33,481 nucleotides of DNA, from assembly GCA_902797395.1 (NCBI GenBank), contig CADBSO010000046.1, forward strand, positions 1-33,481, written 5' to 3'. Below are positions 1 through 32,129 of the stretch, piece after piece (the stretch's first letter is position 1; each line of letters opens with the position of its first letter). The notes under the pieces were generated by a model. It ran no database searches. It had not been told where the DNA came from and was given only the letters and a program-made list of their open reading frames with translations. The position numbers were made by a program, and so were the translations under genes. This DNA is from an uncultured Spirochaetales bacterium. GTDB taxonomy: Bacteria > Spirochaetota > Spirochaetia > Sphaerochaetales > Sphaerochaetaceae.

Positions 1-2136
1 GAACGCGCCAAGGCCAACCGATGTGACGGATGCGGGCAACGAAAGCGCGGTAAGGGATGAGCAGAACGCGAAAGCCTCCGGCCCAATGGATTCAAGACCT
101 TCAGGAAAGTTTATGGAAGTCAAGCCGCCGCATCCGCTGAAAGCAGATGCGCCTACCGTTTTCAGATTCGTCAGATTCGAAAGATCAACCCCATTCGCAA
201 TCCCCACGCAGCCTTTGAATGAATTTTCCGGAATCGACGCAACCGACCCCGCTATCTGAGTATCGAACCTTATCTGTTTCACGAGCTGGTTCATGCCCCT
301 GCTTTCCCAAACGGCGCTAGACGCGTTGAATATGGTCAACTCGCCATTGACGAGTTTAAACAACGGATTATTGAGGCTATTGTTTGCCGGATTGTTGCTA
401 TTATCATATCTTATCAGAACGGTACTGGGTATTCCCTCAAAAGCTTCCGTTCCAAAGCTGACTACCGTAGAGGGTATGCTGATTTCCGTCATAATCGACG
501 AACAACCGTAAAATGCCTTGTTTCCTATGGTATCGATCCCATCGTTCATTCTTATTGAAGTAAGCGTGTTGCAACCGGCAAAAGCCATCGCAGGAATCGA
601 ACCCTCCTTTGTCAGCTCAACAACTTTAATCGTTTTCGGAATATAATAAACAGCGGTTTCATCCTCGCTCTGCACAACCTGATACCTTTTGTTGCTGGCG
701 CCGTATTCTTCGTTTGAGAAAAAATATCCCAATGTTTTTCCGGCCAATGAAGTCAGCTCGATAGTATTGAGGTTGATGCAACCCTTAAGGATATCGCTCC
801 CGTATTCCACGCCGACATGATCAGCAGCCGGTATCGCAGCCGAACCGGAATAATCCCTGATGCTAAGAACATCCATCGCAATGCAATCCTTGAAAGCATT
901 ATCGCCTATTCTTCCCACATTGGCGACAACGCTGAAGCTGTCAAGCTTGCTGCAGCCTAAAAAAGCGCAGTCGTCTATTTCATTCAGGGTTTCCGAAAAC
1001 AGCACGTTCTTAAGACTCTCACAGTTGGCAAAAGCATATTTTCCGATTTTTGTGATTTTTCTCGGAGCATTATCCATAGAACCGAAATTAACGGATTTGA
1101 GGTACGGCATCCCGTAAAACGCATAATCGTTGACAGAGGTGCACTCACCCCTAACCGTCCCCAATACGTCCACAGTATCCGAAACGGCGCCTATGACCGT
1201 CCAATCATTCTCATCTTTCATAAAGTATTCGAGATTATCAAAGTGCTTCAATTTGGACTCGTCCTGACTATCGGTATGAACGACAAGCGCATGCTTTCCG
1301 ATCATTCCATTCGAATCGGAACCCGCTTCCACCCTCGTCTGCAATGCAGTAGACAAGTCATATACCTCAACAAGACGAACACAACCTGAAAAAGCCCCAT
1401 CTCCTATCGAAGCCAAGTTTTTCGGAATGGTAATCGAAAACAACCTGTCACAATTCTCAAAACAGCTTTCCCCTATGCTCTTAAGACCATCCGGAAAATC
1501 AATCTTATTGAGATTGCCGCAATTCTTGAAAGCACGAGCGCCTATTGATGTGACGCTATCCGGAATAACCACATTCTCCAAAGAGGACATGCCATCAAAA
1601 GCATTATCGGAAATTGAGACAACAGTGTAAACATCATCGTTCAAATACACTTCCTGCGGAATTTTAATCTCTTTTGCAGGCACAGCCCTGTTCTTATCGT
1701 TAATGCGCTTGACGCTTATGGTTTTCTTCTCCACATCAATCGAATCATAATCGAACATCCCCTCATCCGCTATGCTGTCAACCACATAAAAAGTCGCAGT
1801 ATCGCTTATAGTCTCATCCACTTTAGAAGTAACTGTTATTCTGGCAACCCCCGGCTTTACAGGAAGCAGCTTTCCTGTAGCCGAATCGTAATTGAGAATA
1901 TCCTCGTTGTGGCATCTCCATGTAACCGACTTGTTTGTAACATCCTGCGGAGTAAATACCGCGGTAAGCCTGACGCTCTTGTTATCAAGCAAAATGACAA
2001 ACCCGCTATCGCTTTGTATATGCACCGCAGTAGGAAAAACCTCAGCCGGCGCGAACAAATCGCACGAAACCGCCTGCAACAGCGCAACCAAAGCAAATAC
2101 AAAACATGATAACGAATACGACAAACGCTTTCCCAT
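1..2136 (-). CDS. BspA-like leucine-rich-repeat surface lipoprotein (C-terminus outside window)
   Basis: The reading frame is open from an ATG at 2136 to the left edge, so at least 712 codons are present and the C-terminus is missing. The N-terminus has a basic start (MGKRLS), a hydrophobic stretch and Cys25 after AVS, which fits a relaxed spirochaete lipobox and export as a lipoprotein. Residues about 30-115 look like a bacterial Ig-like (Big_2) domain: a TAVFTPQDVTNKSVTW-type strand pattern followed by VKPGVARITVTS. From about residue 150 to the edge there are many LRR_5 (BspA-type) repeats, with motifs such as IGDNAFKDC, IGNKAFYGC and IPENSFKGC. Such proteins are usually cell-surface adhesins, so adhesion is inferred. 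An in-frame ATG at 2148 is an alternative start; neither start has a strong ribosome binding site. The gene lies downstream of the flotillin gene on the same strand, with about 200 nt between them. Confidence 0.85.
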   Translation of the reverse strand, partial: MGKRLSYSLSCFVFALVALLQAVSCDLFAPAEVFPTAVHIQSDSGFVILLDNKSVRLTAVFTPQDVTNKSVTWRCHNEDILNYDSATGKLLPVKPGVARITVTSKVDETISDTATFYVVDSIADEGMFDYDSIDVEKKTISVKRINDKNRAVPAKEIKIPQEVYLNDDVYTVVSISDNAFDGMSSLENVVIPDSVTSIGARAFKNCGNLNKIDFPDGLKSIGESCFENCDRLFSITIPKNLASIGDGAFSGCVRLVEVYDLSTALQTRVEAGSDSNGMIGKHALVVHTDSQDESKLKHFDNLEYFMKDENDWTVIGAVSDTVDVLGTVRGECTSVNDYAFYGMPYLKSVNFGSMDNAPRKITKIGKYAFANCESLKNVLFSETLNEIDDCAFLGCSKLDSFSVVANVGRIGDNAFKDCIAMDVLSIRDYSGSAAIPAADHVGVEYGSDILKGCINLNTIELTSLAGKTLGYFFSNEEYGASNKRYQVVQSEDETAVYYIPKTIKVVELTKEGSIPAMAFAGCNTLTSIRMNDGIDTIGNKAFYGCSSIMTEISIPSTVVSFGTEAFEGIPSTVLIRYDNSNNPANNSLNNPLFKLVNGELTIFNASSAVWESRGMNQLVKQIRFDTQIAGSVASIPENSFKGCVGIANGVDLSNLTNLKTVGASAFSGCGGLTSINFPEGLESIGPEAFAFCSSLTALSLPASVTSVGLGAF

Positions 2137-18175: not shown

Positions 18176-18289
18176 TTAGAAGCGCCCTTTATCATCCAAG
18201 TCTACTTCGTGAACAGTTCCGCCTGTCGCTTCCATTTGCGCGATTGATCTTTTAAGACGTGCAATGTTCCCATCAGAATAAAAACGGAT
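18176..18289 (-). pseudogene. C-terminal fragment of a RelB/DinJ-type antitoxin
   Basis: A frame ending in TAA at 18176-18178 reads IRFYSDGNIARLKRSIAQME followed by ATGGTVHEVDLDD. This matches the usual end of RelB/DinJ antitoxins: a FYSEAN-x-ARL helix, then a G-T-x-HE tail. There is no start codon or N-terminal ribbon-helix-helix domain upstream in this frame, because the frame runs into the end of the neighbouring fragment. The partner toxin is absent. I read it as a remnant of a lost toxin-antitoxin locus. Confidence 0.55.
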
Positions 18290-18815
18290 CACGCGCCTGC
18301 ACCACCCAGCTTCCGCTTTTTCTGGAACCGACCCTCTTTACAACACCCTTTTTGCACAATGATGCCAAAATCCTCTTCGCTGTGGCTTCGGATTTGCTTA
18401 TAGCTGCAGCAATCTGAACTCGCGTAACATTCGGATTGGAGGCTATCAAATCCAAGATAATGTGCTCAGATTCATTTAAGGCAATAGTGCCACACACATC
18501 CTTCCCATTATTTATTGGGTCATCTTGGGCGTTTATTGGGTCATCTTGGGCGTTTATTGGGTCATTGCTTCGAATGAACTCAAAGAAAAAACCGAGCGGT
18601 TCCTTACGGAAAGTCCAATTAACACCCTTCGCCTTGCAAAGCTCGGCTACCCTCTGGAAACCGGTTCCTGATTTCTCGACATCCTTGCTTCTAAACAAAA
18701 CGTCCAAAATCAACTTGTTGCGTTTGTATGATGGCAAATTCCTGCCGATGAAATCCAACGGCGTCAACCCATCGGGAAAAGTTCCGGGGTTATAAAAATT
18801 ATTACTCCTACCCAT
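18273..18815 (-). pseudogene. C-terminal remnant of an AlbA_2/HATPase_c_4-type ATP-binding regulator
   Basis: The 180-codon frame begins inside what should be the middle of a larger protein. NPGTFPDGLTPLDFIGRNLP and RNKLILDVLFRSKDVEKSGTG are typical of the ATPase portion of 'putative DNA-binding domain-containing' proteins with an AlbA_2 N-terminus. A winged-helix domain (about residues 115-172, with SKSEATAKRILASLCKKGVV) is intact at the C-terminus. The N-terminal AlbA_2 and most of the ATPase are missing. Its first codons overlap the subtilase stop by 8 nt, so the junction at about 18810 is probably where the defence genes replaced the 5' part. A 21-bp tandem repeat (about 18513-18565) encodes repeated DDPINAQ. 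It could still be translated as a small DNA-binding protein. Confidence 0.6.
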
Positions 18816-21042
18816 CAAACACGATCTCTTCCTCTGCTAAAGCATAATTATTGACCATGACATCCATATCGCATATTTGCGCATCCCAATTATGTTCGGC
18901 CCGGCACAAGCGAACAAATTCATCAAATCTATTTTTGCCGTTTATCTCCTTCAATGTTATCACCGCACCAAATGGCAAACCTTGCCCTGACTTTTTACCA
19001 AGCCTTTCATTGATTTTAATGCTTATTCCCCATTCCCGGTTTTCATACGATTTTCTTGCTGAGTTCCTGCCTTGCTTTTCACAAATATACTTAACATTAT
19101 CCCATTTCCTATAAATATCACGGGCGTCATCTTCATATACTTTTTCAGTACTCTGATTGTCACCATTAATCGAATTAATACTATTTTTATTATCAATTCT
19201 GCCGAAAAGCATACTCAATTCAGTATCGGTATAATCCACACCTTGATTCCGCGAACACTTCGGAAAATAACAAAACGTCACCTTGCATATAAACGGATAT
19301 TTGCCCTTCGCTTTTGGCAGAGGTATATCATAAGCATAAGTATCATATTTTTCAGCTCTACCATAAATAAAGAATTTTATCTCGTCGTCATTGGTCTTTA
19401 ACATTTCATCAATTACAACCGGAACCCGTCCATAGCCAATCAAATCCCTATTTTTTTCATCTACTTTCCATCCGGCGGCGGAATCTATGATCAAAGCCTT
19501 GGCAACTTCACGTGGCAATTTCATTATGTAAATCAAATATGCCAACTTACGTGATACCCAAGGAGCGGCAAAAGATGTTCCCCGAACTTTCTCTATTGAA
19601 TTTCCAGGCGCGCATACATGAATTCCATCAAAACTATCGCCACCATAATAAGACACATCCGGTTTTCTGAAAAAACATAAAACAGGACCTTTTCTCGAAT
19701 AATTCGCAGGCTTCCCATCAAAAGCAACGGAATTCACAACAATCGAATTCAACGAATCAGCAGGAGAACCGATACGCGGAAAATCTATGTTTCTATTTGA
19801 ATTATTCGTGCCTGAAACCACAAATACGACATCGAATTCATATTGCAAATCATCTAACACCCAAGCCCCTGGAGAAATCTTATTCTCCTCAATCTCCGCT
19901 TCGCTCCCCAATGATAAGTTCCAAACTTTTACATCACGATTGCTGGAAACTATATTCCTTATTTGCCTGATTATACTCAAAGAACTATTTCTGCCTTCTA
20001 CAGCAACTCCGAAATGACGAACCCTAAAACGGCCACATCCATCATCGAAATTCGGATTTAATGCGGAACCATCAACAATCAGCGACGAAATGATTGTCCC
20101 ATGACGATAATCTTTGCCATTCATATTTTTATCTGCAAGCGCTTCATTCAAACAATTCCTATAATCAACCCATTTGCTGAAATAAACATTATTTGAAAAC
20201 AGAGTATCAATAACACCTATAACAGGCTCATTAGAAGGTTCCGGAATGCTTAAACCGCTACTAACACCGATTTTATCAACCACAGTTCCAACATTATAAT
20301 TGCTAATGTCTTCCGTGCTCATTGAAATCAAAAAACCAGCAGAATCAACCAGTTTGGAATATTGCCCAGGAGTCAATAGCCAAGTAAATTCATCGAATCT
20401 ATCAAATTTTTCATTTTCAAACCCAATCTTCGAAATCAGTTCTTCATAACTAATTCCTGTGTCATAAATTGAAACCAATGTATCATTCTTAATAGAAGCA
20501 GATATGCCAGCGTTGGGGACGGAAAATCTTTCAATATAAAATAGATCCTTTATTATCCCAGCAAATGCGCTTTTGCTTAATTCTGTAAAAAGTTTGCCAC
20601 CTCTAAATAAACCGCAAATACCATCACTACCAATCTCTCCGCCAAAAATTCTCTGGACAATACTCAGACATTTGCTGATTTTCTCAACTGCCGATTTTAT
20701 GCAATCAATGCTAATGCAATAGGTTATTATGTGCTTAGGATTCGCAGAGGAACTGAATCTTGCCCCCCTGATAGCATCATTCGATGAAGCCCCTTTGTAA
20801 TCGAATATATTCGATATTCTATTAGTTTTGGCAACTATTTTCGTATAATGAACATCAACCAATGGCTTAAATCCCAATTCGTTATCATGCTGCCAATAAT
20901 CAAGAATTTTCAATAAGTTATCATAAAGATTCAGTATTCTATCAGAGGATATGCTCGAACCTTTTGGGATATTCGCCATTCCCTGACCCGCAATACGAGT
21001 CCTATGATTTAATTTCCCCCTCAGACAAACCAAATTATTCAT
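18808..21042 (-). CDS. Cytoplasmic subtilisin-like (S8) protease, anti-phage pair member (IteS-like)
   Basis: The 744-residue protein carries the full subtilase triad: Asp279 in PVIGVIDTLFSNN, His314 in DYRHGTIISSL and Ser490 in RGTSFAAPWVS, with an oxyanion Asn at 413/414 in VSGTNNSN. There is no signal peptide or propeptide, so it should act inside the cell. About 270 residues precede the catalytic domain and about 200 follow it; both parts are unfamiliar and may receive the signal or select substrates. The start ATG 21042 overlaps the stop of the AAA+ ATPase gene by 8 nt (ATGAATAA), giving strong coupling. I recall a subtilase/ATPase anti-phage pair named IteS/IteA; I expect this to be related but cannot verify it. 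Role inferred: infection-triggered proteolysis. Confidence 0.85.
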   Translation of the reverse strand: MNNLVCLRGKLNHRTRIAGQGMANIPKGSSISSDRILNLYDNLLKILDYWQHDNELGFKPLVDVHYTKIVAKTNRISNIFDYKGASSNDAIRGARFSSSANPKHIITYCISIDCIKSAVEKISKCLSIVQRIFGGEIGSDGICGLFRGGKLFTELSKSAFAGIIKDLFYIERFSVPNAGISASIKNDTLVSIYDTGISYEELISKIGFENEKFDRFDEFTWLLTPGQYSKLVDSAGFLISMSTEDISNYNVGTVVDKIGVSSGLSIPEPSNEPVIGVIDTLFSNNVYFSKWVDYRNCLNEALADKNMNGKDYRHGTIISSLIVDGSALNPNFDDGCGRFRVRHFGVAVEGRNSSLSIIRQIRNIVSSNRDVKVWNLSLGSEAEIEENKISPGAWVLDDLQYEFDVVFVVSGTNNSNRNIDFPRIGSPADSLNSIVVNSVAFDGKPANYSRKGPVLCFFRKPDVSYYGGDSFDGIHVCAPGNSIEKVRGTSFAAPWVSRKLAYLIYIMKLPREVAKALIIDSAAGWKVDEKNRDLIGYGRVPVVIDEMLKTNDDEIKFFIYGRAEKYDTYAYDIPLPKAKGKYPFICKVTFCYFPKCSRNQGVDYTDTELSMLFGRIDNKNSINSINGDNQSTEKVYEDDARDIYRKWDNVKYICEKQGRNSARKSYENREWGISIKINERLGKKSGQGLPFGAVITLKEINGKNRFDEFVRLCRAEHNWDAQICDMDVMVNNYALAEEEIVFDG

Positions 21043-22081
21043 TTGCTTCTCTTGCAGTTTCCCTTGAAATCTGACTCTTCGACACACCTGTAATCGCTTC
21101 AATCTCTCTTAAAGTAAAGCCCCTTTCAATCAAAAGCTTGTAATCCTTTAACATGCCCGGACTTATCTCCTCTACCATCCTTCGCAAATAATCGTTTCCA
21201 TCATTAAAATTGCTAAACGCTATAGAAGTCCTTATCAAATTCTTCAAATCGCCAGGATAAGGAATCGGATTCATCAACGAAATTATTTTTTTGAATAGCC
21301 TTGTGCTGTCCTTTATATTCTTGAATCTGGACCGAATTTCATCATATATCACCACAGCAACTTCCAAAAGATCCTCCTGACTATAACGATTGAAATCAAT
21401 AACCTTATCAAATCTTCTCAAAAGCGCTTTATCAAAAGATGTTATTAAATTCGTGGTTGCTATAAATACTATATTGTCATTCAACCCGTCCAAGCCCTTC
21501 AAAACAGCCGTTGTCGCCCTGCCCATCTCCCGCAAATCCCTACTGTTGACCCTATCCATTGCAAGCGCATCCATTTCATCAAAAAGAATAATCACCTGAT
21601 CAGGATAATCCAAGTTATTTATTTCATTGAATGCTTTGCCGATATTCTTGGCGGTTTCACCCAATTTGCTATCTATAACACTATTGAAATCCAATGCATA
21701 CAATTCCCTGTTCAATATCCTGCAAAGTTGCTTGGCACATTCCGTCTTACCAGTTCCAGGACTACCCGAAAACAGAAACTTATTGACTCCGGAATGCTGA
21801 AAAATAGCGTTAGAAATACCCTTGATATCCTCGCTTATTGGCATCGGAAGCGGCAATTTTGCATTCACATATTCTATTTTCCTGAAAAAATCAGAACTAC
21901 CATTGATTTTTTGAGGAACAAACGCATTTTTACCAGAAAGAAGCACCCGTATGTATTCCGCAAGCTCGATATCGCCGGATTCATTAAAATCCCTGGCAAT
22001 TTCAAATGCCTCATCCTCAAATGCGACATCATTACCTTCCATATGGTATTTTATCAGATTTATAATGCTCTTTTTCTTCAT
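21035..22081 (-). CDS. AAA+ ATPase paired with the subtilase (IteA-like)
   Basis: The 348-residue protein has a central AAA+ module: Walker A GSPGTGKT (residues 106-113), Walker B IILFDEMD (164-171), sensor 1 FIATTN and an arginine-finger region LLRRFD. About 90 helical residues precede it. The last 40 residues include GFTLREIEAITGVSKSQISR, which has the spacing of a helix-turn-helix and is unusual at the end of an AAA+ protein. The ATPase probably senses infection or controls the protease encoded directly downstream. ATG 22081 has GGTGGG close upstream, and a promoter lies at 22097-22126. There are no transmembrane segments. Confidence 0.85.
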   Translation of the reverse strand: MKKKSIINLIKYHMEGNDVAFEDEAFEIARDFNESGDIELAEYIRVLLSGKNAFVPQKINGSSDFFRKIEYVNAKLPLPMPISEDIKGISNAIFQHSGVNKFLFSGSPGTGKTECAKQLCRILNRELYALDFNSVIDSKLGETAKNIGKAFNEINNLDYPDQVIILFDEMDALAMDRVNSRDLREMGRATTAVLKGLDGLNDNIVFIATTNLITSFDKALLRRFDKVIDFNRYSQEDLLEVAVVIYDEIRSRFKNIKDSTRLFKKIISLMNPIPYPGDLKNLIRTSIAFSNFNDGNDYLRRMVEEISPGMLKDYKLLIERGFTLREIEAITGVSKSQISRETAREANE

Positions 22082-22096
22082 AGCCCACCCAAAAAC

Positions 22097-22126
22097 ATTA
22101 TATTATTTTATTGGGACAAAAATCAA
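22097..22126 (-). promoter_or_regulatory. Promoter of the AAA+/subtilase operon
   Basis: On the minus strand, TTGATT (22121-22126) and TATAAT (22097-22102) are separated by 18 bp, about 15 nt before the ATG of the AAA+ gene. This separates the pair transcriptionally from the restriction operon upstream. Confidence 0.6.
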
Positions 22127-22230
22127 GAAAACAAGACATACTTTTTAAATTTCAATATAAATAATAAAAATATGCGAAAAATGATCTCAGAACAATGCCT
22201 AGTTTGGATTTTAAAAAGCATCATGGAATC

Positions 22231-22857
22231 CTACTTATAATAAAAATTCTCAATAATCTCCTCATCACTCTTTTCATCTCTGGCATCCGCAGAAAAACAA
22301 AAACTAATCGTATTATCTTCCTTGAATCTTTGATACAATTCATTTCTCAATAGCAATGCCTTATTAGTATTGTATTCCGTACGATAATTCCCCGTAGCAT
22401 TACGCTTCAAACTATAACAATATATCTTATTGGGATCTTCAGAATCACATCTGCTCAAATAATCAACCATGATTTTTTTATCACTCCTTGTAAAATCCAT
22501 AGGAACGGCCGATGGAATGCTTTTATTTACAAAACTCGAAAACTGCTCAATAATATTGCCTAAATTCAAAGAATATTCGATCCCAAAAAAACGTCTGAAT
22601 TTTCCAATATCAGGAATTAATATCTTCATAGAATTCGCTTCCCAGCTTTCAGTGTCATGTTCAAAGCCGTTTTTAATAAACACCAACTTTGCCAATGCGT
22701 ATCTATCGGTCTTCTTATGCTTATCTGTAAATCTACTAACCAACACCGAATACCCAATAGATTTATATAAAAACGGAAAAACGCAGACAACAATATTTTT
22801 AAGCCGCATATCGTTAATTAATTCCTTTAAATTTACCAAAACAAAACCCTTACTCAT
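22231..22857 (-). CDS. Small uncharacterised defence-island protein (possibly DUF6037)
   Basis: I cannot assign a function. The protein has about 208 residues, no membrane segments and no recognisable catalytic motif. The segment NLKELINDMRLKNIVVCVFPF followed by DRYALAKLVFIKNGFE resembles a family I recall as DUF6037, seen near restriction and abortive-infection genes; this is tentative. The start is uncertain: ATG 22857 lacks a good ribosome binding site, whereas TTG 22839 has AAGGG 7 nt upstream and gives the family-like start MVNLKELINDM. It lies 94 nt behind the LlaJI-like nuclease gene and 149 nt before the AAA+/subtilase operon, so it could belong to either. A TTGACA overlapping the nuclease stop codon may give it its own weak promoter. 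Confidence 0.65.
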   Translation of the reverse strand: MSKGFVLVNLKELINDMRLKNIVVCVFPFLYKSIGYSVLVSRFTDKHKKTDRYALAKLVFIKNGFEHDTESWEANSMKILIPDIGKFRRFFGIEYSLNLGNIIEQFSSFVNKSIPSAVPMDFTRSDKKIMVDYLSRCDSEDPNKIYCYSLKRNATGNYRTEYNTNKALLLRNELYQRFKEDNTISFCFSADARDEKSDEEIIENFYYK

Positions 22858-22951
22858 TTCCCACATAAACAACCTATCAAACACACTAATATCGCAGCAA
22901 TTTGCAAAATCCCATGCAAAATATCATCAATACACTTCAATCATTATTTTG

Positions 22952-24706
22952 TCAATCATCCTGCGCCCACTGAAAAGGCAGCATATCTAGAAAAGCAGGG
23001 CGACGCCATTTGATATCACCACAATCCAGCAATTCTTGCAAAAATGTTTCTCCGCTTACATAATGCCCGAACAAAACATCCGGATCGGCCTCGATTACCT
23101 GAACGTTTCCTGCCTCTTCATCGAAATTGTGTAAGCAAGCCAAGAAATTCAATTTTACAAACCCGACTTTTTTCAATGCTAATTTCCCATTATCATCCTG
23201 ACAACTTCCTACACGCATCGGCAGAACAAAAGCATTTATTATCCTCTTAACTTGAAGAACCTGAAGAAAATTACTGCCATATTCAAAAGCATCTATATAT
23301 GCGTACTGCTTAACAACACTGTAAATCCCCGGCTGTGACTTTATCGTGCCTTCCGTTTTCTTGCCATTGATTGTTTCATCTTCAGCACAAGCATGTTCAT
23401 AACAATAATACTTGGCATCCAGAATAGCAAAAATATTATCATCGTCTTTCTTTTCAACAATTATCACATCAGGCTTCAAGGTTTCCGAGGCATAATGCTT
23501 TTCTTCTTCCGAAAACTTCCACAGCGGCTTGTCTATAAGATCCATTGCAATCGCTTCAGCAAATGTTATTTCATCAGAATTGCCATCCAAAGTTTTCTTC
23601 GCCATATATGGTATTGGGTTATGTATTTTCAGATTGTCTAATATTTCTTTCAATTTAGCATCCTTGCAATCGCCAAAAACCACCTGGCAAGCCCTTTCCC
23701 ATACCACATGGAAAGAATTCGTCACGAAATATTCCAGCTTATCGGAATCCTCATCTCTGGGAATTTTATTATCAATATAATCATGGAGATATTTCAGCAC
23801 TGTTTGCATGCGGACAACATATTGCTCGCAGCGCTCTAGTTCAATCATGTATTTTACATATTCATGACTGTTATCCGGATCGAAATCTTCCAGCGTCATA
23901 GGCGTAAGCTCTACGCCGGAAATATCGAAAATATCCGACAAACCGCTATTCGTCATGTCTCTGGATATCTCGCTTAGGACCACTTCATGCAAACGGGTTA
24001 TGTAATTAGAGCTATCGTCTGCAAGTTCGTTTGTTAGAAGATCCAAATAATACGGACGCCCATTCTTGAAAAAAGGCTGCGTCTCATTCACCGTCCTGTC
24101 CCAGTCTACCTCGCCATTGCCATTCAAAACAGTTTCCGAAACAAACCTGCGATACAAACCGTTTTCGTAATAGTCCTCTAAGATGGAAAGCTCAAGCGCA
24201 AGCTTAGGGGAAATATCATTGGATTCATTTTCATCGTCATAATCTGAAATGCTTTCTTCATCCTTGTTCTTATTTTCCTCTATGTACCGTCTCAAAGCGG
24301 AAAATGCGATTTTAAATCTCCCTAAGCCAACGGAATCAAGTTCAAGACTGCGCTCGCCCTTACCATCATACTCCCTCATGTATTTTGGGTATATCAGGAA
24401 AATCATTCCTTTGTGCTCGATAATACCAACACAGCAGAAAGAAATTCTCTTCCCGTCGTATTTTTCTTCAACTAAAGCCTGCCTGTCTTCATCCTCGTCA
24501 TCATCACCAAAAGAAGGGATGTCATGATCATCATTGTTTTTCTTATCGCCTTTAAGCACTTTCAAGAACTTGCATCTGCTGAACTTGGTAACAATACCAT
24601 TGCATTCATCTTTTGAAAAAGGCGGATTTGTCCTACTGGCAACAGCCTTGCAAAAATCCTGGAAGTCATAGGATTTCCCCTCACGGAAACAGATAAACTT
24701 GCTCAT
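22952..24706 (-). CDS. LlaJI-type restriction nuclease subunit (McrC-like)
   Basis: The 584-residue protein resembles the R2 subunit of LlaJI. It has ISFCCVGIIEHKGMIFLIYPKYM near residues 88-110 and a PD-(D/E)xK nuclease core near the C-terminus: Asp413 in LKPDVIIVEKK and DAK (430-432) in FAILDAKYY, with an upstream Glu in FHVVWERAC. Acidic low-complexity runs lie at about 58-75 and 145-165. McrC-type subunits dock onto the McrB-type GTPase motor and cut DNA. ATG 24706 lies 10 nt after the McrB-like stop; its ribosome binding site is poor, so coupled translation is likely. The C5 methyltransferase two genes upstream should protect host DNA, making this a modification-blocked system rather than a methylation-dependent one. 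Confidence 0.8.
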   Translation of the reverse strand: MSKFICFREGKSYDFQDFCKAVASRTNPPFSKDECNGIVTKFSRCKFLKVLKGDKKNNDDHDIPSFGDDDEDEDRQALVEEKYDGKRISFCCVGIIEHKGMIFLIYPKYMREYDGKGERSLELDSVGLGRFKIAFSALRRYIEENKNKDEESISDYDDENESNDISPKLALELSILEDYYENGLYRRFVSETVLNGNGEVDWDRTVNETQPFFKNGRPYYLDLLTNELADDSSNYITRLHEVVLSEISRDMTNSGLSDIFDISGVELTPMTLEDFDPDNSHEYVKYMIELERCEQYVVRMQTVLKYLHDYIDNKIPRDEDSDKLEYFVTNSFHVVWERACQVVFGDCKDAKLKEILDNLKIHNPIPYMAKKTLDGNSDEITFAEAIAMDLIDKPLWKFSEEEKHYASETLKPDVIIVEKKDDDNIFAILDAKYYCYEHACAEDETINGKKTEGTIKSQPGIYSVVKQYAYIDAFEYGSNFLQVLQVKRIINAFVLPMRVGSCQDDNGKLALKKVGFVKLNFLACLHNFDEEAGNVQVIEADPDVLFGHYVSGETFLQELLDCGDIKWRRPAFLDMLPFQWAQDD

Positions 24707-24716
24707 CAAAAAACGC

Positions 24717-26660
24717 TTAATCGCTTTGCTTGCCGTCGTTGTTCGCATTGACACTGAATTTGAATATCCCCAAACCCTTATTGTCATATTCCTCACGCAA
24801 CATTGAATATGTCAAACAATAGTTTTCATCAAACAGGGTTTTCGGATTCATTTTCACCACATCTTCGTAAAGATACATAAGAAGTTTATTCTTAAATTGA
24901 TTTTTAAATTCTTCAGTTCCTTTACCATTATCATTGGCATTTGCAATAACGCTACCTTTAATAAAGAACGGACCTATGCATCTGTCCTCATGAACATTTC
25001 GGAAGTTTTCAAGCAAATACCCGTTCAACGCTCGTCTGAAATCGACCCACTTCACCGTCGACCAACTGTCGCTGTCCTGCTCGGGACTAGCCGGTATATC
25101 GCAATCATCCAATTCAGTATTATCGTAAAGGCCAACATATTCCATATCCCACCTGCGCTTGAAGGCGGCATCAAGCGGCTGAACGCCCTGATCAGCGCTA
25201 TTCATGGTTGCCCAAATATACATGTTGCTCGGAATGCAAAGCTCATCCGTTTTTTCAATTCCTTCGGATTTCAAATATTTGCGCAAATCCTCGGATGTCT
25301 TCACAGGATATTCGCTCTTACCTTCCTCATCCCGATCCAAAAGCTGAAAAACATCACCAAAAACCGCAGGCGCATTTGCACGGTTGAGTTCTTCGATTAT
25401 CAGAAGAAAGTTATCATTAGGATTTTTTATCGCCCTTTCGTATGTCCGAATAAAAGGTCCCGGAACATATTCGTAAGAAATCACATCCTCTCCCTCGTTA
25501 TTCCGATTCATAACAGGTTTGTAGCAACCAACAAACTGAGCATAAGTATATGCAGGATGAAAAGTGACACGTTCGACAAAAAATTTTTGAGGATTATTCT
25601 TGATATAATCAATATAATGTCCAAGAATTGCGGACGGCAAGCCTCCGTTATCTCGACTGAACTTAGAGAATGCTTCATCAACATCGTTTTCGCTCTGCAT
25701 TTTCTCTTTGATGCCCTCTATTTCTCTCAAAGTGAGGCCATAAGGACTAAAACCGCTTCTGTTCATTTTTTCCAGCGCCGGCTTATAATCTTGATTAAAA
25801 GTCGACTTCTCAACAGGCAATTTCTGCAGATAATCATGAAATTCAGAATCTATCTGACTTAGAGAATGAATCCTAGCATCTTTTACAAGTTTATGCGATT
25901 TACCAGTTCCTGGAGCACCGAAAATAAGACGATTACGATGAAATGGAAGCACCTCAGCTTTTTCCAAATCATTTCTAAATAAGTAGGCTGGAGAATCTCC
26001 AAACCCAACACCTTTTAACAAACTTTCAATTTCCTTCTTTACATCTTCTTGCTCCCAACGCAAGCACCCAACCATATCGATTGAATATTTACCTTTAAGA
26101 AAAGACAAACCATCCTGGTATACTTTTTCCTCAGAAGAAAAATCAGAAAACCTATTCAACCAAAGAAATAAAATAGCATACTTATGCAGAGATTCCCCTA
26201 AATAATCACCTGATTTTGCCAAATTATCATATCCACTATGGTCTACAGATACTTTGCCATCTTTTATCAATAACAAAACAGGGTGTCTATTCGGAAAATG
26301 AAAATCATTGTCAGAACTCAAAGAATTCTTTACAACATTTACACTAAAGAAATTGCTGCCTACGTTATAATCTTTTTTCTCCACAAAAGATTTAGAAAAA
26401 TTTATCGTTCCAAATGGCAAACCACTGGTATTACTCGACAAAAACACCATACTTCCAACGCACTCAATAAACCCGTCCTTATCGATTCTTCCCCTTGTAT
26501 CACATTCCCGGTTAAATTTTTTCATAAACTCATCTGTGGCAAAAAAATATTTCAACTCACTTACAAATTGAGTACCACCTTGAGCATCGATATCTACACC
26601 AGAATAAAGCGTTGCCATTTTGCCATACAAATCCACCAAATATTCTTTTGAAAAAAACAT
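24717..26660 (-). CDS. McrB-like AAA+ GTPase subunit of LlaJI-type restriction system
   Basis: The 647-residue protein has an unfamiliar N-terminal domain of about 230 residues, likely a DNA-recognition module (including LPFGTINFSKSFVEKKDY). An McrB-family motor follows: Walker A GAPGTGKS at 248-255, FHPAYTYAQFVGCYKP, Walker B LLIIEELNRAN, and the signature MNSADQGVQPLDAAFKRRW in place of the usual MNTADRS. GTP hydrolysis would drive translocation and bring nuclease subunits together. ATG 26660 follows the methyltransferase stop by 1 nt, with GAGGG 5 nt upstream. The order methyltransferase > GTPase > nuclease is that expected for a LlaJI-like operon. Confidence 0.88.
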   Translation of the reverse strand: MFFSKEYLVDLYGKMATLYSGVDIDAQGGTQFVSELKYFFATDEFMKKFNRECDTRGRIDKDGFIECVGSMVFLSSNTSGLPFGTINFSKSFVEKKDYNVGSNFFSVNVVKNSLSSDNDFHFPNRHPVLLLIKDGKVSVDHSGYDNLAKSGDYLGESLHKYAILFLWLNRFSDFSSEEKVYQDGLSFLKGKYSIDMVGCLRWEQEDVKKEIESLLKGVGFGDSPAYLFRNDLEKAEVLPFHRNRLIFGAPGTGKSHKLVKDARIHSLSQIDSEFHDYLQKLPVEKSTFNQDYKPALEKMNRSGFSPYGLTLREIEGIKEKMQSENDVDEAFSKFSRDNGGLPSAILGHYIDYIKNNPQKFFVERVTFHPAYTYAQFVGCYKPVMNRNNEGEDVISYEYVPGPFIRTYERAIKNPNDNFLLIIEELNRANAPAVFGDVFQLLDRDEEGKSEYPVKTSEDLRKYLKSEGIEKTDELCIPSNMYIWATMNSADQGVQPLDAAFKRRWDMEYVGLYDNTELDDCDIPASPEQDSDSWSTVKWVDFRRALNGYLLENFRNVHEDRCIGPFFIKGSVIANANDNGKGTEEFKNQFKNKLLMYLYEDVVKMNPKTLFDENYCLTYSMLREEYDNKGLGIFKFSVNANNDGKQSD

Positions 26661-26661
26661 A

Positions 26662-27894
26662 TCAACCCTCTAAACTCTTTATAAGTGCCTTGACGAAAAC
26701 CCATGCCATAACTGGCGGAACGGCGTTTCCTATAACTTTATACCTCGACTGAAGAGGTATACTATCTAAATCAAAATCATCAGGGAATGATTGTATTCTT
26801 TTTATTTCTTTTACAGAAAATCGTCTATTCTCCACAGGATGCGTAATACCACAATTCTCTGGTTGTGCAGAAGCCGTAATAGTTCCATTAATTTCACCGT
26901 AAGCAAATCTTCTAAAAAATTTTGGAGAATGATACTTTTTCGGATCATTATATATTTTTAAAAACCTCTCCGAGAGCAGTTCTGGAGATATATTTTTCCA
27001 CGATCGCCCTTCACCAATATTTTTAGGCATTCGAGAGATAGCTACCCTCTTCTTAAAAAAATCTATAGCATCTTTGCCGTGACTACAAATTCCTATCTTC
27101 TCGACCATCGACTGCGTGGATTGTGTATATTCCCAGTATTCACCAGGATCATCAATATCTTTCAAAATCGAGCCAAGTAAAAGATCGTATTCCGTATGAT
27201 TCTTTTCAGAAGGCAGCTTAAATGATTTCACTATATCGTCTGCAGCATCAAAATCAAAACAATGTTTTTTCAAATCCTCATCCACTCCGATAATCAGAAC
27301 CCTATATCTTTTCTGAGGAACGCCATAGTCACTAGAGCACACCAATCGCTGCGAAACGGAATACCCTAAGGCCTCCATCCTCTTACGTATTTCATTTGTA
27401 ACCGTTATGCCATTTGGCATTTTAGAAGATAATATTCCTCTCACATTTTCAAACACAAATGCTTTCGGTTTGTGATTGAGCAGTGCCTTATCTTTCAGTA
27501 CACGCTCACAGACTTCAAATAGAGTTCCTCGTCCATTAGAATCATTAACCCCACGCCTATTTCCAGCATTCGAAAATGGCTGACATGGAAAGCCTGCAAG
27601 CATTATATCAAAGTCTGGAATATCCGATGATGGAATTTCACGAATATCACCAAGCCTACATTTTTTCTTATGATGAAACAACTTCAAATTTGAATTATAT
27701 GCAGAGACTGCATCGATATCAATGTCGTTTGAAAATATAATTTCAGTAGGAAGACGATTATATTTTTTTCCTTGAAATATAAATCCTCCGACTGATCCAA
27801 GATCCATTCCACCGCACCCAGAAAATAAACTACAGATTTTCAGCCTTGTCTTGTTTTTATTTTTAAGATGATCGTTGTTTGCCATTGTATCCAT
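26662..27894 (-). CDS. DNA (cytosine-5-)-methyltransferase
   Basis: The 410-residue protein carries the ordered C5-methyltransferase motifs: I (LFSGCGGMDLG), IV with the catalytic Cys104 in GFPCQPFSNAG, VI (FENVRG), VIII (PQKRYRVLIIG) and X (YKVIGNAVPPVMAWVF). It transfers a methyl group from SAM to cytosine C5 and would protect host DNA from the co-encoded McrB/LlaJI-like nuclease. LlaJI itself has two such methyltransferases; here I see only one, which may suffice for a symmetric site or be complemented elsewhere. The start ATG 27894 or ATG 27885 has no clear ribosome binding site. The gene follows a 37-codon ORF by 67 nt and probably shares its promoter. Confidence 0.93.
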   Translation of the reverse strand: MDTMANNDHLKNKNKTRLKICSLFSGCGGMDLGSVGGFIFQGKKYNRLPTEIIFSNDIDIDAVSAYNSNLKLFHHKKKCRLGDIREIPSSDIPDFDIMLAGFPCQPFSNAGNRRGVNDSNGRGTLFEVCERVLKDKALLNHKPKAFVFENVRGILSSKMPNGITVTNEIRKRMEALGYSVSQRLVCSSDYGVPQKRYRVLIIGVDEDLKKHCFDFDAADDIVKSFKLPSEKNHTEYDLLLGSILKDIDDPGEYWEYTQSTQSMVEKIGICSHGKDAIDFFKKRVAISRMPKNIGEGRSWKNISPELLSERFLKIYNDPKKYHSPKFFRRFAYGEINGTITASAQPENCGITHPVENRRFSVKEIKRIQSFPDDFDLDSIPLQSRYKVIGNAVPPVMAWVFVKALIKSLEG

Positions 27895-28348: not shown

Positions 28349-29668
28349 ATGCTTTTAGAATTTAAAACAAAGAATTTTCGGTGCTTTAAAGATGAAATGA
28401 CATTCTCAATGATACCGGCTCCGAAGCAAAAAGACTTGGATTACAGCATTCTGAGTTCTAAAATCGGAAGTAAAAACCATTCAGCACTATGCAGCGCTGT
28501 CATATATGGTCCCAATGCATCCGGCAAATCAACAATCATCAATGCAATGGATGTTTTCAAAAATATCGCCTTGAGAGGCAACATAAATAACTGCGAACAA
28601 TTCGAGCCGATCAACATATCTTCCTGCCAGCTTGAATACATCCCTAATATCAGCAGCAATTCATCCGAATCTGTTGATTTTGAAATCAAATTCATAGAAT
28701 CAGATTTGCTATTCAACTACAAAATAAGCATTGCGCTCGGTTCTTTCAAAGAATCGCATTTTGAGCGTCAAATCAAAAGCGAAATCCTCAGAATAAACGA
28801 TAGGATTATATACGAACGAGAAAATAATGAACTTTCCAAATTAGCCATAACCCCCATTAATCAGCACCTCAACAACAAAATCGCGAAAATAAGGCTTGAA
28901 AGAATAGCAGAAAACAGTTTAAGACCCACAGAACTATTTCTCACCAACGGTTTCAAAAACATCATATCAAATAAAATTGTGGAAATATTCGAAATGTGGC
29001 TAAAAGACAAGTTTCTAGTTGTAGTCAGCACCAATTTGATCAGGACATTCGATTTTAATCTTTTTGTCGAAAAACCGGAAGGCAATTATTATGCCGGACC
29101 TACGCTTGACAAATCCCTGGAAATTTTCGGACAATCCGCAAGCAAAACAGGATATACCAAAGAACAAAACAACGCCTTAAGGATTGTCAGCTTTATCAAC
29201 GACAACAAAGGCGAATGCGTCAATTCAAGCTATTTCGAATCATATGGCACCATAAGATTTCTATATGAATTTCCGCTCATACTAAAGGCGCTCAAAACCG
29301 GAGGAATCCTGGCAGTAGATGAATTCGATGCCTCGATCCACCCAATTGCATTCATGAATCTGATAAAGATTTTTCACAACGATGAAATAAACACCAAACA
29401 TGCCCAACTGATTTTCAATACCCACAATCCAATCTTCCTGAATGCCGATTTGTTCAGAAGGGATGAAATAAAATTTGTTGAGAAGAACTCAAAAACAACT
29501 AGCGTTCACTACTCCCTATCGGATTTCAAAACGAAAGATGGTGTGAGAAGAAGCGAAGACTATATGAAAAACTATTTTATAAGCAAATACGGCGCTATTC
29601 AAGATGTGGATTTCTCACAAGTCATTGACGATTACATCAACACTAAAAATACCGTCTCCAAGGACTAA
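28349..29668 (+). CDS. rloA: RloA/AbiLi-type AAA+ (ABC-like) ATPase
   Basis: The 439-residue protein begins MLLEFKTKNFRCFKDEMTFS, the standard start of AAA15/OLD-like defence ATPases. It has Walker A GPNASGKS at residues 54-61 and Walker B GGILAVDEFDASIHP, followed by the FNTHNP switch segment. It lies 7 nt upstream of an RloB-family gene, which defines the RloA/RloB (lactococcal AbiLi/AbiLii) abortive-infection pair. No Shine-Dalgarno is seen; conservation fixes the start at ATG 28349, so a leaderless mRNA is likely. It is one of only two protein genes on the plus strand and is divergent from the restriction operon. No type I hsd genes, its frequent neighbours, are in the window. Confidence 0.85.
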   Translation: MLLEFKTKNFRCFKDEMTFSMIPAPKQKDLDYSILSSKIGSKNHSALCSAVIYGPNASGKSTIINAMDVFKNIALRGNINNCEQFEPINISSCQLEYIPNISSNSSESVDFEIKFIESDLLFNYKISIALGSFKESHFERQIKSEILRINDRIIYERENNELSKLAITPINQHLNNKIAKIRLERIAENSLRPTELFLTNGFKNIISNKIVEIFEMWLKDKFLVVVSTNLIRTFDFNLFVEKPEGNYYAGPTLDKSLEIFGQSASKTGYTKEQNNALRIVSFINDNKGECVNSSYFESYGTIRFLYEFPLILKALKTGGILAVDEFDASIHPIAFMNLIKIFHNDEINTKHAQLIFNTHNPIFLNADLFRRDEIKFVEKNSKTTSVHYSLSDFKTKDGVRRSEDYMKNYFISKYGAIQDVDFSQVIDDYINTKNTVSKD

Positions 29669-29675
29669 AGCCCAT

Positions 29676-30338
29676 ATGAGTACAAGAAAATTTTGTGAAA
29701 AGTTTACAATCATGGTGGAAGGAGAAACAGAACGGCAATATTTCGAACGCCTGCAACTCCTCATCAACAACAACGAATCATCAAATAAAAAAATCTCAAT
29801 TCAATTCTTGCCGCATAAAAACCCAATAAAGGCATTAAAAAGCATTCCTGCAATCTCCATGCCTGCATTTGCATATGTTTGCGATATTGAAGGATCAAAT
29901 CCGGCAGATAAATCCAACAACCTAATCAACATTGATTCCGAATTCGCAAAATTCAAGAAGCAAACCAAAAACAACAAACTGGCTATCAAATACTCAAACC
30001 TGTCCTTCGAGTTATGGATAATCCTACACAAACAAGATCTATCCGCTCCTCTAAATACAAAAGGCGAATATTTGCAGTTCATTAACAAATCTTTTGACAC
30101 CGCCTTCGAAGGAACAAAAGAATACAAGTCCGAAAAGAATTTCAAGATATTGCTGTCCAAAATAAATCTACAAGATGTGATTAATGCAGTTTCCAGATCC
30201 GAAAATATCATGAAAAAGAACAAAGACAACGCCAAAAGGCTAATTCACTTAAAAACATTAGCCTACTACGAGGACAACCCTTCGCTAACCATTCATGAGC
30301 TAGTCAAAAACATGCTAACCAGCTGCGAGATAACATAG
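29676..30338 (+). CDS. rloB: RloB/AbiLii-type protein
   Basis: The 220-residue protein shows the RloB-family N-terminus with TIMVEGETERQYFERL, a Toprim-like acidic motif, then PAFAYVCDIEG with a second acidic site, and SNLSFELWIILH in the middle. RloB is the likely effector activated by the RloA ATPase during phage infection; the biochemical activity is inferred from the Toprim-like motif. ATG 29676 follows AAGGA at 11 nt and lies 7 nt after the rloA stop. A longer in-frame extension into rloA is possible but lacks family support. The 30339-30439 gap to the convergent ASCH gene shows no clear terminator. Confidence 0.85.
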   Translation: MSTRKFCEKFTIMVEGETERQYFERLQLLINNNESSNKKISIQFLPHKNPIKALKSIPAISMPAFAYVCDIEGSNPADKSNNLINIDSEFAKFKKQTKNNKLAIKYSNLSFELWIILHKQDLSAPLNTKGEYLQFINKSFDTAFEGTKEYKSEKNFKILLSKINLQDVINAVSRSENIMKKNKDNAKRLIHLKTLAYYEDNPSLTIHELVKNMLTSCEIT

Positions 30339-30786: not shown

Positions 30787-32129
30787 CTAAAGCTCAAGTT
30801 TCGGCAAGTAAGTTGGCGATGGAAAATCATATCCGTTCTTCAAGAACATCAGCATGTAAATCGGGAGATATATCCTGTTCCCTTCCGCTTTCAAATTAAA
30901 ATTTGACAAAACATACCCTCTTCTTATGCCAAAACACTTATTCGACAAAAGGTTATTAAGAGCGGAATGCCTCTTTGCAATCCTTTCCGCTTTTCACCTC
31001 TATGGCAATCACATTTCCTTCATGTTCTATGAGAAAATCAATCTCCCCGGTCTTCTTGCTATTATAATAAAACAACTGAAAGCCATGAGCAGCAAGCTCC
31101 TGAGCGGTCACAGATTCGTAAATGCTTCCGAAATTCAGATTCACTTCTCCGTTCAATATCCTGATCTGGTTTCCATTCAGCAACTTGCACGACAGCAGAC
31201 CGACATCAGAAGGGAAAAGCTTGAAAAGCGCCCTTTCCTTGCTTGCCAGGAGCGGATATTTCGGCTCATCGACGTTATAGGCGAATATCCCGACACCGCT
31301 ATTTGAAAGCCATGTGGACGATGATTCATACTTGTAAAACCGCGCCTTCTGGTTAAGCTCCTTCAATATGAACCTCTTGTTTTGGTTGTTCAATTCAGAA
31401 GGAATAAGCTGATATATGTCTTGAATCAGAACCGACTGGTCCCTGTTATACTTGCTTATATGCCTCAGATAATTCGAGTCTATGTCTTTTTGAACCCTAA
31501 CAACATCCTGGATGTTATTGGTGCGAACGTATGCCTCTACCGCTTCAGGCTTTCCGCCTATTATAAGATACGTATTGAAAGCTTTCATAATCCTGTCATG
31601 CACAACCGGATCAACTTCATTGAAATTATCGTAGCAACCCCTCAAATAGCTCATCGTGTCCGCATTGATGCCAACAGCCATTAAAAATTCCTCAAAGTCC
31701 ATGGGATACATCTGCAACACCCTCATGAACCCAACGGGAAATGATTATATGCTCTGCATTTTCACGCCCAAAAGCGAACCTGAAAAAACAAACCTATAGC
31801 GTCCGTCTTTAACAAGATATTTAACCAATGCGAAAGCATCCTTTGCCTGCTGAATCTCATTTATGAACAATACTGTCTTGTTTGGAACAAGAGGCTTCTT
31901 GGAAAAAGCGGAAAGCCTAAGCAACAGCTCGCCAGCATTCGCAGCGCTATCCACCGCCTTCAGCACTTCGGCATCTTCAATAAGATTGGAGGCCGCGAAA
32001 CTGTTCGATTCGCTTTTAAGAAACTCCTCTATTACCGTTGTCTTCCCGACTTGCCTGGCACCCTCTATCAGCAATGCCTTGGAATCAGTTTCATACCACT
32101 TTTTGATTTCATCGTATATTTTTCTTCTA
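30787..32129 (-). pseudogene. AAA ATPase with DUF4143 domain, inactivated by three lesions
   Basis: The pieces add up to one ATP-binding protein of the kind with an AAA_14 motor and a DUF4143 C-terminus. The 5' part reads RRKIYDEIKKWYETDSKALL, then Walker A GARQVGKTT and Walker B VLFINEIQQA. Three defects are visible. First, the start codon is missing: a repeat element (32130-32200) abuts the codons for LRRKIYDE and puts a TGA just upstream. Second, an in-frame TAA at 31745-31747 splits SGSLLGVKMQSI from SFPVGFMRVLQMYPMDF. Third, a one-base frameshift near 30975 separates IEVKSGKDCK from RHSALNNLLSNKCFG, which then continues to a TAG at 30787-30789. The nuclease-like end is otherwise complete, so the decay is recent. 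Confidence 0.85.

What the first reader, a model, noticed from the sequence alone, without database searches (positions are those of the whole stretch)
18808..22081. Self-contained AAA+ ATPase/subtilase operon in a defence island
Two genes overlap by 8 nt and have their own promoter. The ATPase has intact Walker A, Walker B and arginine-finger motifs. The protease has a complete Asp/His/Ser triad and no export signal, so it must act in the cytoplasm. Lying between restriction and abortive-infection genes, it looks like a proteolytic abortive-infection system: the ATPase senses infection and unleashes the protease. It may be a divergent relative of the IteA/IteS pair that I recall; the protease's 270-residue N-terminal part and 200-residue C-terminal part are unfamiliar to me.
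Basis: partly seen in the sequence, partly recalled or inferred. Interest (0 to 1): 0.75.

Follow-up and report, generated by a model that had tools for sequence, protein, structure and literature searches.

The report
IetAS toxin-antitoxin pair with conserved operator
The two genes are a divergent form of IetAS, a known protease-toxin/ATPase-antitoxin pair used in phage defence; the new part is that its ATPase carries a predicted DNA-binding tail and its promoter a tandem DNA box kept across many bacterial phyla, so the pair probably represses itself.

Summary
In detail: an AAA+ ATPase (21035-22081, -) overlaps a cytoplasmic-looking subtilase (18808-21042, -) by 8 nt, all motifs intact. It is IetAS, a known toxin-antitoxin/anti-phage pair (PADLOC IetS 222 bits, IetA 122 bits), but a divergent subfamily (22-24% identical to an NCBI-named IteAS; far below NCBIfam equivalog cut-offs). 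In characterised homologues the protease is the toxin and the ATPase the antitoxin, so 'ATPase unleashes protease' is not the best reading.

(1) IetA ends in a predicted helix-turn-helix (residues 314-347). (2) Before ietA lie two direct repeats, TGTCCCA, 20 or 21 bp apart, around the -35 box and before the -10. The pair (<=2 mismatches) is in 84 of 91 dereplicated promoters from many phyla (0.1 expected), not at neighbouring spacings, in 0 of 24 canonical ietA promoters examined, and (<=3 mismatches) in 4 of 4 hold-out loci. Two exceptions have an altered or decayed helix.

Best model: IetA both silences IetS and represses the operon. The protease's 'unfamiliar' ends include a subtilisin-propeptide-like domain and a C-terminal beta-domain. 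Autorepression and anti-phage activity of this subfamily are predictions, not tested.

The parts
21035..22081 (-). ietA: AAA+ ATPase, 348 aa, predicted antitoxin and repressor
   Evidence: PADLOC IetA 9.9e-36, Pfam AAA, model pLDDT 85, closest folds FtsH/PAN/Rpt/Rix7/NVL AAA modules Z 18-20
18808..21042 (-). ietS: subtilase, 744 aa, predicted toxin (D279, H314, S490)
   Evidence: PADLOC IetS 2.9e-66, Peptidase_S8, model pLDDT 86.8
21041..21142 (-). codons of the C-terminal helix-turn-helix of IetA (residues 314-347; GFTLREIEAITGVSKSQISRE)
   Evidence: helices 314-319, 324-331, 335-347, block pLDDT 91-95 up to residue 340; HTH_38 in 5 of 45 members, best 9e-8; sub-threshold HTH hits on the isolated tail
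22132..22138 (-). operator copy 1, TGTCTTG (degenerate)
22112..22118 (-). operator copy 2, TGTCCCA, 20 bp after copy 1
   Evidence: TTTTTGTCCCAA occurs only twice in the 2.0-Mb assembly, upstream of its two ietA genes
22121..22126 (-). -35 box TTGATT, between the two operator copies
   Evidence: same layout in relatives
22097..22102 (-). -10 box TATAAT
   Evidence: same layout in relatives
20257..20496 (-). codons of the IetS propeptide-like domain (about residues 183-262)
   Evidence: alignment of the model to pro-subtilisin E 3whi (model 183..548, chain 6..364, Z 26.9) and EpiP 3t41 (185..555)

Best explanation
A divergent IetAS pair: a toxin-antitoxin type defence module. IetS is a cytoplasmic subtilase toxin with an internal propeptide-like domain. 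IetA is an AAA+ antitoxin that keeps IetS inactive and, through its C-terminal HTH, binds two TGTCCCA boxes 20/21 bp apart that bracket the -35 box and precede the -10, repressing its own operon. When infection or loss of the element consumes or disturbs IetA, repression lifts and free IetS cuts host or phage proteins, halting the infected cell. Shown here: membership in the broad family, conserved pairing, intact motifs, predicted HTH, the operator and its restriction to this subfamily. Taken from homologues: protease = toxin, ATPase = antitoxin. Inferred: that IetA binds the boxes and represses, and how infection triggers IetS.
For: PADLOC hits for both genes; NCBIfam IteS 3e-49, IteA 1e-26. 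Homologue sgiAT: subtilase toxic alone, ATPase neutralises it (PMC5006074). Operator: 84/91 dereplicated promoters at 20/21 bp with <=2 mismatches of 14, none at spacings 13-19 or 22-23, shuffles 0.11%; after removing relatives >=60% alike, box columns mostly 1.5-2.0 bits, surrounding columns 0.03-1.2; 4/4 hold-out loci with <=3 mismatches. Geometry: -35/-10 with <=4 of 12 mismatches in 75/84, mostly 17-bp spacer, -35 3-6 nt after copy 1, -10 6-8 nt after copy 2. Away from ietA promoters the pair is at chance level; the exact pair occurs once per genome, before ietA, in R. flavefaciens and a Magasanikbacterium. HTH tail. No third co-conserved gene found near the pair, so the regulator is most simply IetA. 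Exceptions fit: M. hyorhinis has a decayed HTH and no operator; Macrococcus has a changed recognition core (SISTLSR for SKSxVSR) and no TGTCCCA.
Against: No binding or repression data. The promoter of the canonical relative sgiAT is strong and, if anything, more active when SGI1 is present (PMC9927553), so canonical IetAS may not self-repress. Most single-protein HTH hits are below Pfam cut-offs. The window's own copy 1 is degenerate (3 mismatches in the pair). Anti-phage action of this subfamily is untested. The alternative 20-bp repeat in one Macrococcus plasmid is not in a second one.
Confidence: 0.7

Rival explanations
1. The ATPase is the activator: an AAA+ sensor/unfoldase that recognises infection and feeds or opens the protease, like PAN-proteasome or FtsH; the HTH tail would sense foreign or damaged DNA.
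For: IetA's AAA module is closest in fold to proteolytic and remodelling AAA+ such as FtsH, PAN, Rpt subunits. An ATPase paired with a protease and a propeptide-like domain in IetS would fit activation by removal of an inhibitor.
Against: In sgiAT the subtilase kills without the ATPase, and the ATPase rescues (PMC5006074). The HTH's conserved partner sequence sits in its own promoter, which points to regulation.
Confidence: 0.2
2. The TGTCCCA pair is a site for some other regulator or a general promoter element, and the IetA tail is only a protein-protein module.
For: No binding data; small three-helix HTH folds can bind protein; most Pfam HTH scores are sub-threshold.
Against: The same box occurs before ietA in Spirochaetota, Bacillota, Pseudomonadota, Campylobacterota, Elusimicrobiota, Actinomycetota and candidate phyla, while no third gene is conserved beside the pair; the box is at chance level elsewhere.
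Confidence: 0.15
3. The pair mainly stabilises mobile elements (plasmid or island addiction); defence is secondary.
For: sgiAT promotes SGI1 maintenance (PMC5006074). Subfamily members lie on Carnobacterium and Macrococcus plasmids and on viral contigs.
Against: The window pair and a 68%-identical second pair lie on ordinary contigs beside restriction genes; NCBI and PADLOC file the family as anti-phage. Not exclusive of the best explanation.
Confidence: 0.35

Closest known systems
IetAS (PADLOC IetA/IetS; DefenseFinder Gao_Iet; NCBIfam 'IteA/IteS' NF042959/NF042956)
   Same: Gene order, AAA+ ATPase then S8 peptidase, overlapping genes, protein lengths, best profile matches for both proteins.
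   Different: 24% (IetA) and 22% (IetS) identity to the NCBI-named Acidovorax pair; scores 94 of 510 and 168 of 900 bits of the NCBIfam cut-offs; N-terminal 160-250 residues of IetS not matched by the models; TGTCCCA operator, absent from canonical promoters examined.
SGI1 SgiAT toxin-antitoxin pair
   Same: Subtilase toxin plus AAA antitoxin, one operon (PMC5006074).
   Different: Genes 20 bp apart in SGI1; a strong promoter with no reported self-repression (PMC9927553). Its sequence was not compared directly here.
Type II toxin-antitoxin modules with autorepressing antitoxins
   Same: Antitoxin gene first, antitoxin with HTH, operator over the promoter (logic from general knowledge).
   Different: Antitoxin is an AAA+ ATPase and toxin a subtilase; direct rather than inverted operator repeats two helical turns apart.
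Pro-subtilisins and KP-43/Tk-SP subtilases (3whi, 1wmd, 5fax, 3afg)
   Same: Catalytic fold, propeptide-like domain, C-terminal beta-domain.
   Different: IetS has an extra N-terminal domain of about 180 residues and no evident export signal.

Membership tests
IetAS defence system | IetA-type AAA+ ATPase | tested here: met
   PADLOC IetA best hit, 9.9e-36, 121.9 bits
IetAS defence system | IetS-type S8 peptidase with Asp/His/Ser | tested here: met
   PADLOC IetS best hit, 2.9e-66, 222 bits; triad invariant
IetAS defence system | The two genes adjacent and in that order | tested here: met
   window and relatives
IetAS defence system | Protects against phage | not testable with these tools
   needs plaque assays
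NCBIfam equivalogs IteA/IteS | Score above the curated cut-off | tested here: not met
   168 vs 900 bits and 94 vs 510 bits: not the same equivalog
Toxin-antitoxin pair (sgiAT/ietAS type) | Protease toxic alone, ATPase neutralises | not testable with these tools
   shown for the homologue sgiAT (PMC5006074)
Autoregulated toxin-antitoxin operon | Antitoxin with a DNA-binding fold | tested here: met
   by prediction only:
Autoregulated toxin-antitoxin operon | Operator overlapping the promoter | tested here: met
Autoregulated toxin-antitoxin operon | Antitoxin binds the operator and represses | not testable with these tools
   needs EMSA and reporter assays

The most novel reading that the evidence does not exclude
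A cross-phylum IetAS subfamily in which the AAA+ antitoxin is itself a sequence-specific repressor: an ATP-driven ring protein whose HTH tails sit on two boxes two helical turns apart, so that its state (ATP, bound toxin, infection signal) is read out both as protease release and as operon induction.
Probability: 0.55. Interest if true: 0.65.

Novelty: new variant of a known kind. Interest (0 to 1): 0.5.

Why it matters
How IetAS is held in check and triggered was not explained in the papers found here. A self-contained operator with an HTH on the ATPase makes that directly testable: one promoter fragment, one protein and two box mutations. It also shows that a subfamily with hundreds of relatives (474 loci, tblastn E <= 1e-3) is missed by NCBI's named equivalogs, so defence surveys relying on those undercount it.

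Tried and rejected
LexA-type or other known operators: not pursued after the direct repeats were seen. Alternative operator in Macrococcus: a 10-nt repeat at 20 bp in one plasmid (P about 0.008) but not in a second, so inconclusive. A regulon beyond ietA: pair hits elsewhere in the fetched loci are scattered with 1-2 mismatches, at chance level; a looser pattern occurs about as often as its reversed control in 196 genomes. A third conserved gene: the largest neighbour clusters are antisense reading frames of ietA/ietS. Canonical ietA promoters: no TGTCCCA pair, but starts were uncertain and most of the 24 are near-identical prophage copies, so 'absent' rests on about nine distinct sequences. 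Residues 1-180 of IetS: the PDB comparison barely tested this part, so no statement of a new fold. Literature: no paper found on IetA autoregulation; the 2020 Science paper (DOI 10.1126/science.aba0372) that I recall as describing the anti-phage system is not held.

Full report
Observation. The two reading frames, the strand, the 8-nt overlap and the motifs are as described. The protease begins at the ATG at 21042 (744 aa). The window lies on contig C46 of a 2.0-Mb, 148-contig draft genome.

What it is. Both proteins have IetAS as their best PADLOC family (IetS 2.9e-66, IetA 9.9e-36). NCBIfam gives the same family under the spelling IteS/IteA, far below the equivalog cut-offs. The pair is therefore IetAS in the broad sense, but not the equivalog. 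Identity to the NCBI-named Acidovorax pair is 24% for IetA and 22% for IetS. In contrast, the window IetS is 38-50% identical over its full length to relatives in many phyla, so this is a coherent subfamily, found also on Gram-positive plasmids and on viral contigs. The scan of genome contigs confirmed 474 relatives at tblastn E <= 1e-3 and kept the best 80. A second pair, 68% (IetS) and 73% (IetA) identical, lies elsewhere in the same genome.

What is known. For SGI1 sgiAT, a homologue, the subtilase is toxic when expressed alone and the ATPase neutralises it; the authors compare it to ietAS of pTiC58 (PMC5006074). The sgiAT promoter is strong and not under SOS control in Salmonella, and seemed more active when SGI1 was present (PMC9927553). 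Neither paper shows autoregulation.

New observation 1: a helix-turn-helix on the antitoxin. All intact subfamily IetA sequences examined except that of M. hyorhinis end in a motif like GFTVREIEILTGxSKSQVSREL. The AlphaFold model (mean pLDDT 85) shows helices at 314-319, 324-331 and 335-347, with block means of 91-95 up to residue 340. Pfam HTH_38 matches 5 of 45 members of the alignment (best 9e-8), and the isolated tails of single members give several sub-threshold HTH hits. Canonical IetA tails also give weak HTH hits, so a tail of this kind may be general in IetA.

New observation 2: a tandem operator. Upstream of ietA two direct copies of TGTCCCA lie 20 or 21 bp apart. With at most 2 mismatches of 14 the pair is in 84 of 91 dereplicated promoters; no locus has it at spacings 13-19 or 22-23; dinucleotide shuffles give 0.11% (0.1 locus expected); the 24 canonical loci have none (these are about nine distinct sequences with uncertain starts). 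Of the seven misses, the window and L109 have it with 3 mismatches, L089 and L144 have it further upstream, L065 is a truncated contig, and two are real: M. hyorhinis, whose HTH has decayed, and Macrococcus, whose recognition core differs. After removing promoters 60% or more alike, 75 loci remain; the box columns carry mostly 1.5-2.0 bits and the neighbouring columns 0.03-1.2. Four loci fetched later as a hold-out all carry the pair (0, 1, 1 and 3 mismatches).

Geometry. A sigma-70 type -35/-10 (at most 4 of 12 mismatches) is present in 75 of 84, mostly with a 17-bp spacer; the -35 starts 3-6 nt after copy 1 and the -10 starts 6-8 nt after copy 2. In the window: TGTCTTG 22138-22132, TTGATT 22126-22121, TGTCCCA 22118-22112, TATAAT 22102-22097, ATG 22081. 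A protein on these boxes would cover the core promoter, which is the layout of a repressor site.

Specificity. In the fetched loci the pair is at chance level away from ietA. In the window's own genome TTTTTGTCCCAA occurs only twice, before the two ietA genes. In R. flavefaciens and a Magasanikbacterium the exact pair occurs once per genome, before ietA. The looser pattern in 196 genomes is about as frequent as its reversed control, yet marks the ietA promoters of most genomes with an intact pair. No third gene is co-conserved beside the pair, so the regulator should be encoded by the pair itself, and IetA has the HTH.

Protease anatomy. The IetS model (pLDDT 86.8, pTM 0.89) aligns to pro-subtilisin E over 183-548 and to EpiP over 185-555, that is including their propeptides, and to KP-43/SubHal/Tk-SP out to residue 697-699, that is including their C-terminal beta-domains. 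A low-confidence linker near 248-262 is where autoprocessing would be expected (inference). Residues 1 to about 180 were barely tested by these comparisons.

Mechanism. Best supported: IetS toxin held by IetA antitoxin, with IetA also repressing its operon; infection or loss of IetA releases IetS.

Verdict.

Noticed in passing
window 22952-27894: LlaJI-type restriction-modification set: C5 methyltransferase (26662-27894), McrB-like AAA protein (24717-26660), LlaJI endonuclease (22952-24796), all on the - strand.
   Followed up: no
window 22231-22884: DUF6037 protein (1e-58) directly upstream of the ietA promoter, of unknown function.
   Followed up: no
window 18273-18818: Truncated gene with a RecG-C-terminal-like HATPase_c_4 domain and a winged HTH, overlapping the ietS end by 11 bp; its N-terminal part is missing, as if IetAS had replaced it.
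   Followed up: partly
window 28349-30338: AAA_21 (AbiEii-like) ATPase overlapping an RloB-like gene, on the + strand: a further candidate defence pair.
   Followed up: no
window 30956-32074: DUF4143 and AAA_14 pieces of one ATPase split into two adjacent reading frames, probably a broken gene.
   Followed up: no
L039 12990-16264 (G000:C126): Second IetAS pair in the same genome, 68% and 73% identical, with its own operator (AGTCTCA, 20 bp, TGTCCCA), beside a shortened HsdR-like frame.
   Followed up: partly
L056 7098-10130 (minus-strand coordinates as printed): A broken IetAS copy in a Sphaerochaeta relative (frames interrupted in both genes), its promoter pair still present.
   Followed up: no
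L061 4887-13702: Mesomycoplasma hyorhinis IetAS with decayed HTH and no operator, beside an array of site-specific DNA methyltransferases.
   Followed up: partly
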